IMG/VR virus record: IMGVR_UViG_3300044643_000326
Span: 1 to 20,432 of that record
Length of the DNA stretch: 20,432 bases
From: a virus
Strand: one strand, 5' to 3'
Shown: one piece after another, positions 12,627-14,425 of the stretch
Position numbering within the stretch: position 1 is the first letter of the stretch
How the letters are laid out: every line of letters starts with the position of its first letter
Notes under the pieces: generated by a model
The model's database searches: none
What the model saw: only the letters and a program-made list of their open reading frames with translations
Told to the model about the DNA's origin: nothing
Position numbers and translations under genes: made by a program

Positions 12627-12818
12627 TTAGTAAGTGAAGCCAATGAAGACAAGCTTATCACCCTTGATCATCAATTCTTTATTGATGTCTTCAGCATCGA
12701 TGCATGAATAGGCTTTTGAAGCTTTGCAGTATTCACCGCGAATATAAACAGTCTTGGCTTCAGGCTTGCGCTTGAAATAGTCGCCTTGTTTGACTTGTTT
12801 GATTGTGACGTTTTGCAT
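12627..12818 (-). CDS. Conserved phage hypothetical protein (63 aa), first leftward gene
   Basis: The sequence 'MQNVTIKQVKQGDYFKRKPE', then 'AKTVYIRGEYCKASKAYSCI' and 'KGDKLVFIGFTY', is a small phage family known to me by pattern (KQGDYFKRKP, TVYIRGxY, YSCID, V-x-GFTY). It is a probable beta-barrel of unknown role. As first gene after the divergent region it is likely an early gene. Its ribosome site AAGGAT pairs with an immediately upstream ATCCT (12,826-12,837). Confidence 0.82.
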   Translation of the reverse strand: MQNVTIKQVKQGDYFKRKPEAKTVYIRGEYCKASKAYSCIDAEDINKELMIKGDKLVFIGFTY

Positions 12819-12863
12819 GGTTTGTATCCTTCAGGATGTTTAAGATGTTGCGGGAGTCGCTAG

Positions 12864-12891
12864 GTTATCACACAAAACCACTGTATGTAAA
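12864..12891 (-). promoter_or_regulatory. Candidate leftward early promoter
   Basis: TTTACA (12,891-12,886) and GATAAC (12,869-12,864) are spaced by 16 bases upstream of the first leftward gene. One copy of the 15-bp repeat lies across the -35 and the spacer, and the other is 22 bases upstream. The boxes match consensus only partly. Confidence 0.4.
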
Positions 12892-12909
12892 TAGCAAAAC
12901 CACTGTATG
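12873..12909. repeat. Two exact 15-bp direct repeats, 22-bp phase
   Basis: CAAAACCACTGTATG occurs at 12,873-12,887 and 12,895-12,909. The 22-bp period is two helical turns, so a regulator would bind both copies on the same face of the DNA. They overlap the candidate early leftward promoter. Confidence 0.75.
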
Positions 12910-13015
12910 CCCGGTAAAGATTTGTAAAGCAAAGGACAGTGATGTATACTTTTGTTTCGCGTTATCGGGCTTTGCAGTGTAGGGGATATGCTTTTTTGTT
13001 GGTGTTGTTGGTGTC

Positions 13016-13162
13016 GGTGTTGATGGTGTTGGTTGGTTTAGATGGTGTTGGTTTTTGTTGGTTGTTGTTGGTTGGTGTTGGTTGGTTTAGATGGTGTTGG
13101 TTTTTGTTGGTTGTTGTTGGTTGGTGTTGATGGTGTTGGTTGGTAAGGGTTGATGTTGTATT
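13016..13162. repeat. C-free GT-rich tract with 49-bp tandem duplication
   Basis: The plus strand has no C over 147 bases and is built of GGTGTTGGTTGG-like words. Bases 13,025-13,073 and 13,074-13,122 are identical 49-base units. A diverged partial third copy begins at 13,123. The many GG pairs allow two-tetrad G-quadruplexes or R-loops on this strand. Confidence 0.85.
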
Positions 13163-13186: not shown

Positions 13187-13207
13187 AAATGAGAATCATT
13201 CGCATTT
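13187..13207. promoter_or_regulatory. 21-bp palindrome resembling a Fur box
   Basis: The sequence AAATGAGAATCATTCGCATTT is symmetrical at all but one pair of positions around the central C. The inner 15 bases fit the 7-1-7 Fur consensus TGAnAATnATTnTCA at nearly every fixed position (GCA instead of TCA at the end). It may be a host Fur site or a phage operator. Confidence 0.5.
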
Positions 13208-13544
13208 GGGATTAACCATCATTTGAGACACTGTTTTTGAATCAGTTAACAATGTTCTTCTAAGTCGTTGATTTCATTAGAGTTTTCTACAGTCTAGTGA
13301 CTTGCAAAGCTTTAGATTCTCTACCAGCTACAGCATTGTAGGCATTTTGTTTTCTAGCTGGTAACGCTGTCATTGCTAGGGCAGGCGTGGGACACCCCCC
13401 GGTGGTGCGCTATATGTATACAACAAAGCCCACGGAAGGGTCTTTTTCAACCTGTTAACCACCACCATCTAAAACGCTCCATCCGTACACTATGTAGCCC
13501 ACACACGGCCTACACAGCCTCCACAATCGCTTAACTGTACAGGA

Positions 13545-13833: not shown

Positions 13834-13861
13834 TTGACAACATTTTTCATGTCGGTATAAC
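13834..13861 (+). promoter_or_regulatory. Strong sigma70-like rightward promoter
   Basis: TTGACA (13,834-13,839) matches consensus perfectly, and TATAAC (13,856-13,861) matches five of six bases. The spacer is 16 bases. Transcription would begin near 13,868 and run toward the packaging module with a leader of about 300 bases. Confidence 0.65.
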
Positions 13862-13883
13862 ATAGGGGTATTGGGGCTTGGGG

Positions 13884-14170: not shown

Positions 14171-14425
14171 ATGACCATTTTGTTGAATAGAGAAGCGGTA
14201 GAAGCTAAAGGGATGATAGATAGTCCCCCTTATTCTGTTGCATCAGATGTGTTTAAAGCGTTACATCGCAACCAGCTAGACAGCCTACACATTCCGCATA
14301 GTGATGTTTATTACGTCAGAGCAGCTTTAGAAAAGCATACAGGCTACTACTTTCCTTTAGATGTTGTAGAGAAAGCTATGCGCGATGAAGGCTGGCGTGA
14401 CCGCAAAGGTAAAGGACGATATTGA
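14171..14425 (+). CDS. Hypothetical protein (84 aa), first rightward gene
   Basis: The protein starts MTILLNREAVEAKGMIDSPP and contains 'SDVYYVRAALEKHTGYYFPL', then 'VVEKAMRDEGWRDRKGKGRY'. It is helical and basic at the end, and no family is recognised. The ribosome site before ATG 14,171 is weak (AGAAG). Its stop lies one base before the next start, so the two genes are coupled. Confidence 0.65.
   Translation: MTILLNREAVEAKGMIDSPPYSVASDVFKALHRNQLDSLHIPHSDVYYVRAALEKHTGYYFPLDVVEKAMRDEGWRDRKGKGRY

What the first reader, a model, noticed from the sequence alone, without database searches (positions are those of the whole stretch)
13016..13162. C-free GT tract with a perfect 49-bp tandem duplication at the divergence point
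The plus strand lacks C for 147 bases and contains two identical 49-base units plus a diverged third start. Such extreme strand asymmetry at the boundary of leftward and rightward transcription could form G-quadruplexes or R-loops and prime or pause replication. An exact repeat of this length also suggests recent slippage or active selection.
Basis: partly seen in the sequence, partly recalled or inferred. Interest (0 to 1): 0.62.

Follow-up and report, generated by a model that had tools for sequence, protein, structure and literature searches.

The report
GT-rich repeat in phage control region
A stretch of phage DNA with no C on one strand is a recently duplicated, fast-changing tandem repeat sitting where related phages keep other repeats or DnaA-binding sites, in what looks like the phage's replication-start and gene-control region.

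Summary
Window 13016-13162 has no C on the + strand, and 13024-13072 is repeated exactly at 13073-13121. The window is a fragment of an uncultured relative of HMO-2011-type podoviruses. The tract lies in a 1.35-kb noncoding region between leftward replication genes and rightward packaging genes. The close relative L126 has the same tract with exactly one 49-bp unit, so the duplication looks recent. Other relatives carry unrelated repeat units in the same interval: 18 bp (L031), 24 bp (L025), 10 bp (L079), 8 bp (MW202701), and 21-bp tandem DnaA boxes (L053, L055). Many have no array. DnaA boxes are 21-fold enriched in this region of relatives, and all exact Fur-type palindromes found in 1.39 Mb lie in it. 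I read the tract as a slippage-born minisatellite in the variable repeat slot of a putative origin and control region. G-quadruplex potential is weak and not shared by the other arrays; R-loops and replication pausing are untested. The sequence is dispensable; the position, and a G/T bias on the same strand, recur.

The parts
12997..13162 (+). G/T-rich minisatellite (imperfect ~10-bp unit TGTTGGTTGG); C-free from 13016
13024..13072 (+). 49-bp unit, copy 1
   Evidence: the single copy of L126 matches it
13073..13121 (+). 49-bp unit, copy 2, identical to copy 1; the match runs on to 13129
12852..12966 (.). left module, 85% identical to L031 but unrelated to L126, which has DnaA boxes here
12864..12891 (-). 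candidate leftward promoter read by eye: TTTACA, 16-nt spacer, TGT-GATAAC; faces away from the tract
   Evidence: inference, also kept in L031
12875..12909 (.). two copies of AAACCACTGTATG 22 bp apart, possible operator pair
   Evidence: also in L031; function inferred
13188..13206 (.). Fur-type palindrome AATGAGAATCATTCGCATT
   Evidence: binding not tested
13229..13247 (.). operator-like inverted repeat CACTGTTTTTGAATCAGTT, similar in most relatives
   Evidence: function inferred
13387..13433 (.). conserved core GTGGG..GCGCTATATGTATAC..GCCCAC, followed by GTTAAC
   Evidence: 22 distinct sequences
13834..13863 (+). rightward sigma-70-like promoter TTGACA-18-TAACAT
   Evidence: similar sequence in L017, L031 and L038

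Best explanation
The tract is a noncoding minisatellite that grew by replication slippage in the variable 'repeat slot' of the phage's control region, which is probably also its replication origin. Shown: a G/T array built on an imperfect 10-bp unit; one 49-bp block present twice here and once in L126, with 8 bp of further period match as expected from slippage between short repeats; unrelated arrays, tandem DnaA boxes, or nothing in the same interval of relatives. Inferred: the region is an origin, and replication starts there, or recombination between phages, make arrays expand, contract and be swapped. Also inferred: the array itself works mainly as a spacer of no fixed sequence between the left promoter module and the Fur-type and operator-like sites. 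The same-strand G/T bias is unexplained; amplification of a short G/T seed, or mutation of a strand often left single, would give it.
For: Exact 49-bp difference from L126 with near-identical flanks. Exact unit found only in L126 among viral contigs. Different array units at the same place in L031, L025, L079 and MW202701, and tandem DnaA boxes in L053 and L055. Arrays in 9 of 26 anchored slots, against 44 merged arrays in 1.39 Mb overall. DnaA boxes 21-fold enriched upstream of the neighbouring gene in relatives. Module junction about 30 bp left of the tract.
Against: The window itself has no DnaA box in this region, and no initiation data exist. The shared G/T strand bias is more than plain neutrality predicts and may point to a function. 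Only one relative carries this particular tract, and its single copy could be an assembly collapse. Intergenic DNA holds more arrays than genes anyway, so the enrichment is a guide and not a test.
Confidence: 0.55

Rival explanations
1. Strand-asymmetric replication element: the G/T strand forms an R-loop or G-quadruplex, or is a single-stranded entry or priming site at the origin.
For: Extreme G skew on the + strand (0.97), and all arrays are G- and T-skewed on the same strand. A weak rightward promoter match lies just left of the tract at 12922-12950. DnaA boxes in relatives.
Against: G4Hunter is below the usual 1.2 threshold, with two-tetrad motifs only and none in other lineages' arrays. 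The RNA fold with quadruplexes allowed does not change. The promoter match is not kept in L031. Most relatives have no array.
Confidence: 0.13
2. Recombination-promoting G/T DNA: TGG-type repeats stabilise RecA filaments, so the tract favours exchange between phages at this junction.
For: RecA filaments are most stable on TGG repeats, which resemble Chi (PMC3763553). A module junction lies beside the tract. L025 units contain GTTGGTGG, one base from Chi.
Against: The same paper finds that RecA does not nucleate at Chi. The junction is one case. L079 and MW202701 arrays lack TGG-type repeats over most of their length.
Confidence: 0.12
3. Leader RNA or Rho-utilisation site: a leftward transcript through the tract would be C/A-rich, free of G and unstructured.
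For: The leftward RNA has no G over 147 nt and folds to 0.0 kcal/mol. C-rich, G-poor RNA is the known preference of Rho (own knowledge; PMC9160355 was listed but not read).
Against: The best leftward promoter candidate, 12864-12891, lies left of the tract and points away from it. No conserved leftward promoter was seen on the right. C-over-G excess is modest in L079 and MW202701.
Confidence: 0.1
4. Coding sequence: the 63-codon + strand ORF 12939-13130 is a small hydrophobic protein.
For: The frame is open for 63 codons.
Against: The 49-bp duplication is not a multiple of 3. A-poor DNA has few stops by composition alone. The ORF start lies in the left module, which is absent in L126.
Confidence: 0.02

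Closest known systems
Bacterial minisatellites (VNTR loci)
   Same: Head-to-tail units, copy-number difference between close relatives, short-repeat slippage signature, noncoding
   Different: In a phage, at a fixed place where other lineages carry unrelated units, with a shared same-strand G/T bias
DnaA-box and iteron arrays of replication origins (oriC, iteron plasmids, phage origins)
   Same: Same intergenic slot holds tandem 21-bp DnaA boxes in L053 and L055 and 4-7 boxes in several GP88-bearing relatives
   Different: The window's own tract contains no DnaA box and no known initiator site
HMO-2011-type podoviruses
   Same: Terminase 67-73% identical to isolates CRP-1, CRP-2, CRP-345 and HMO-2011 and 79% to MW202701; primase-helicase, ThyX and integrase present; a similar TATATGTA..GTTAAC core is seen in HMO-2011
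   Different: No such G/T array in the HMO-2011, CRP-1, CRP-345 and CRP-2 stretches examined

Membership tests
Minisatellite / VNTR | Tandem head-to-tail units of about 10-60 bp | tested here: met
   Periods 10 and 49
Minisatellite / VNTR | Copy number varies between close relatives | tested here: met
   Two copies here, one in L126; one relative only, assembly collapse not excluded
DnaA-dependent or iteron origin | Initiator boxes in the window's own region | tested here: not met
   No TTWTNCACA within 1.3 kb left of the core in the window
DnaA-dependent or iteron origin | Initiator boxes in the same region of relatives | tested here: met
   38 strict boxes in 26.5 kb against 15 in 223 kb
DnaA-dependent or iteron origin | Replication starts there | not testable with these tools
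   No marker-frequency data
G-quadruplex element | Four G-runs of at least 3 with short loops, or G4Hunter above about 1.2 | tested here: not met
   No such motif; score 0.71, best 25-mer 0.96
HMO-2011-type phages | Related terminase large subunit | tested here: met
HMO-2011-type phages | DNA polymerase with a partial DnaJ central domain (PMC9038755) | not tested
   No polymerase was identified in this fragment; it was not searched for further

The most novel reading that the evidence does not exclude
HMO-2011-type phages keep a swappable initiator slot in which lineages replace DnaA-box arrays by fast-evolving, same-strand G/T-biased arrays that do the same job without DnaA, next to a Fur-type site that would tie the region to iron.
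Probability: 0.15. Interest if true: 0.68.

Novelty: new variant of a known kind. Interest (0 to 1): 0.4.

Why it matters
HMO-2011-type phages are reported to be among the most abundant and widespread marine viral groups (PMC9038755), yet that paper does not mention DnaA or a replication origin site. The slot described here, with DnaA boxes in relatives, variable arrays, a Fur-type palindrome and a conserved core, is a concrete candidate to test. It also shows how quickly a phage control region can exchange its repeat content while keeping its layout.

Tried and rejected
Coding peptide: rejected (frame-breaking duplication, start not shared with L126). Canonical G-quadruplex: rejected by score and by lack of conservation. 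Rfam families: none in the window. tRNA genes: none. DnaA boxes in the window's own intergenic region: none. The exact unit elsewhere in viral contigs: only L126. Host: the genome collection gave two metagenome-assembled genomes of unlike phyla, so no host was assigned. A paper search for DnaA box, Fur box, phage and origin together found nothing.

Full report
Observation. The + strand has no C from 13016 to 13162 (147 nt; A10 G61 T76), against a next-longest C-free run of 53 nt. The 49-bp unit at 13024-13072 recurs without a mismatch at 13073-13121, and the period holds for 57 positions. An imperfect 10-bp unit, TGTTGGTTGG, underlies the tract.

Setting. The window is a viral record of 20,432 bases and probably a fragment. 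It encodes a primase-helicase, ThyX, an integrase and a GP88-family protein leftward, and a terminase rightward. The terminase is 79% identical to MW202701 and 67-73% to roseophages CRP-1, CRP-2 and CRP-345 and to HMO-2011. The tract lies between the leftward ORF starting at 12818 and the rightward ORF starting at 14171.

Close relative. In L126 the stretch between the anchors GGCTTTGCAGTGTAGGGG and GTATTCCGCTACC is exactly 49 bp shorter (142 vs 191 bp), with one unit instead of two. The stretch to the right of the tract is 90% identical. The exact unit is found in no other viral contig by an exact 27-base pattern. This supports a recent duplication, or loss, by slippage. A collapse of the repeat in the L126 assembly cannot be excluded; a false second copy in the window is less likely.

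Module junction. Left of the tract, window and L031 are 85% identical over 115 bp, whereas window and L126 are unrelated there (36%). L126 instead resembles L012 and L017 (71-73%), which carry DnaA boxes. So a recombination junction lies about 30 bp from the tract.

Other relatives. In the same interval L031 has an 18-bp-type array (TGCTGTATCGGGCTGTGT), L025 a 24-bp array of 8.9 copies, L079 a 10-bp array (GCGCGTGCTG), MW202701 an 8-bp array (GCTGTAGT), and L053 and L055 a 21-bp array of DnaA boxes. Of 26 anchored slots, 9 contain an array with a Tandem Repeats Finder score of at least 74; the other 17 have none. The group loci hold 44 merged arrays of that strength in 1.39 Mb in all. Intergenic DNA is expected to hold more arrays than genes, so this enrichment is a guide and not a test. 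The distance from array to the operator-like repeat is about 65-70 bp in window, L053 and L055 and longer in L025, L079 and MW202701 (read).

Strand bias. All arrays are G- and T-skewed on the + strand in window orientation. For window, L126, L025, L031, L079 and MW202701 the G-C skew is 0.97, 0.92, 0.65, 0.43, 0.25 and 0.36, and the T-A skew 0.81, 0.79, 1.00, 0.85, 0.85 and 0.37. Relatives without an array show only a mild excess (62% G+T at -500). In 2.0 Mb, seven distinct places reach the 80% threshold and six are in this intergenic region. Two of these six are not the slot itself: in L019 it is a G-run element, and in L079 a CA-rich stretch right of the core.

Origin-like features. Strict DnaA boxes occur at 1.43 per kb in the 1 kb upstream of the GP88-family gene, against 0.067 per kb elsewhere in the same loci (38 in 26.5 kb vs 15 in 223 kb; some loci are near-duplicates). 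The window has none there. A core, CGTGGG..GCGCTATATGTATAC..GTTAAC, is shared with variations by 22 distinct sequences, and a similar stretch is seen in HMO-2011. That the region is an origin is inference.

Mechanism. I favour growth of a minisatellite by slippage in a variable repeat slot with no required sequence. Shown: repeat structure, copy-number difference, unit turnover, position. Inferred: the origin, the cause of instability, the spacer role. A DnaA-independent function of the array is possible but has no direct support. The G-quadruplex reading fails the conservation check. The Rho reading fits the composition, but the best leftward promoter candidate (12864-12891) points away from the tract. 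The RecA reading has a literature basis in filament stability on TGG repeats (PMC3763553) and fits the nearby junction, but nothing here tests it.

Side result. Every exact GAGAATNATTCTC palindrome in 1.39 Mb of group loci lies in this intergenic region; they come from eight lineages (L012 and L039 are the two ends of one contig). The full 19-mer AATGAGAATCATTCTCATT, present for example in L012, is the published Xanthomonas campestris Fur-box consensus (PMC1790865); the window copy matches 18 of 19. Fur binding is not shown.

Noticed in passing
window 13188-13206; L012, L013, L017, L019, L021, L031, L034, L038: Fur-type palindrome, identical or nearly so to the published Xanthomonas Fur-box consensus, in the same intergenic region of eight lineages and nowhere else in 1.39 Mb of group loci.
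   Followed up: partly
L003, L006, L009, L016, L021, L022, L053, L055: Clusters of about 4-7 DnaA boxes upstream of the GP88-family gene or in the slot, an unreported candidate origin for these phages.
   Followed up: partly
window 13387-13433; 22 distinct sequences in relatives: Strongly conserved core CGTGGG..GCGCTATATGTATAC..GTTAAC. In many relatives it is G-rich enough for a canonical G-quadruplex (G4Hunter up to 2.4), while the window has CCCCCC there instead.
   Followed up: partly
L038, L048, L053, L055, L123, L136: Another palindrome, TTACTGAC..GTCAGTAA or a close variant, lies in the place of the Fur-type site; L038 has both.
   Followed up: no
L201 4138-4341 (MW202701): The annotated hypothetical protein UOF80745.1 covers the GCTGTAGT minisatellite and is probably not a gene.
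   Followed up: no
L012 and L039: Both ends of the 57.8-kb contig 3300002143_000037 lie in this intergenic region and share about 240 bases, so the contig is probably circularly complete or ends there.
   Followed up: no
L152 1806-1890: A contig picked up only by its Fur-type site carries a tandem 30-bp array of that palindrome, 2.8 copies.
   Followed up: no
L079 1641-1757 and 2110-2209: Two strand-biased stretches in one intergenic region: a G/T/C array left of the core and a CA-rich stretch right of it.
   Followed up: no
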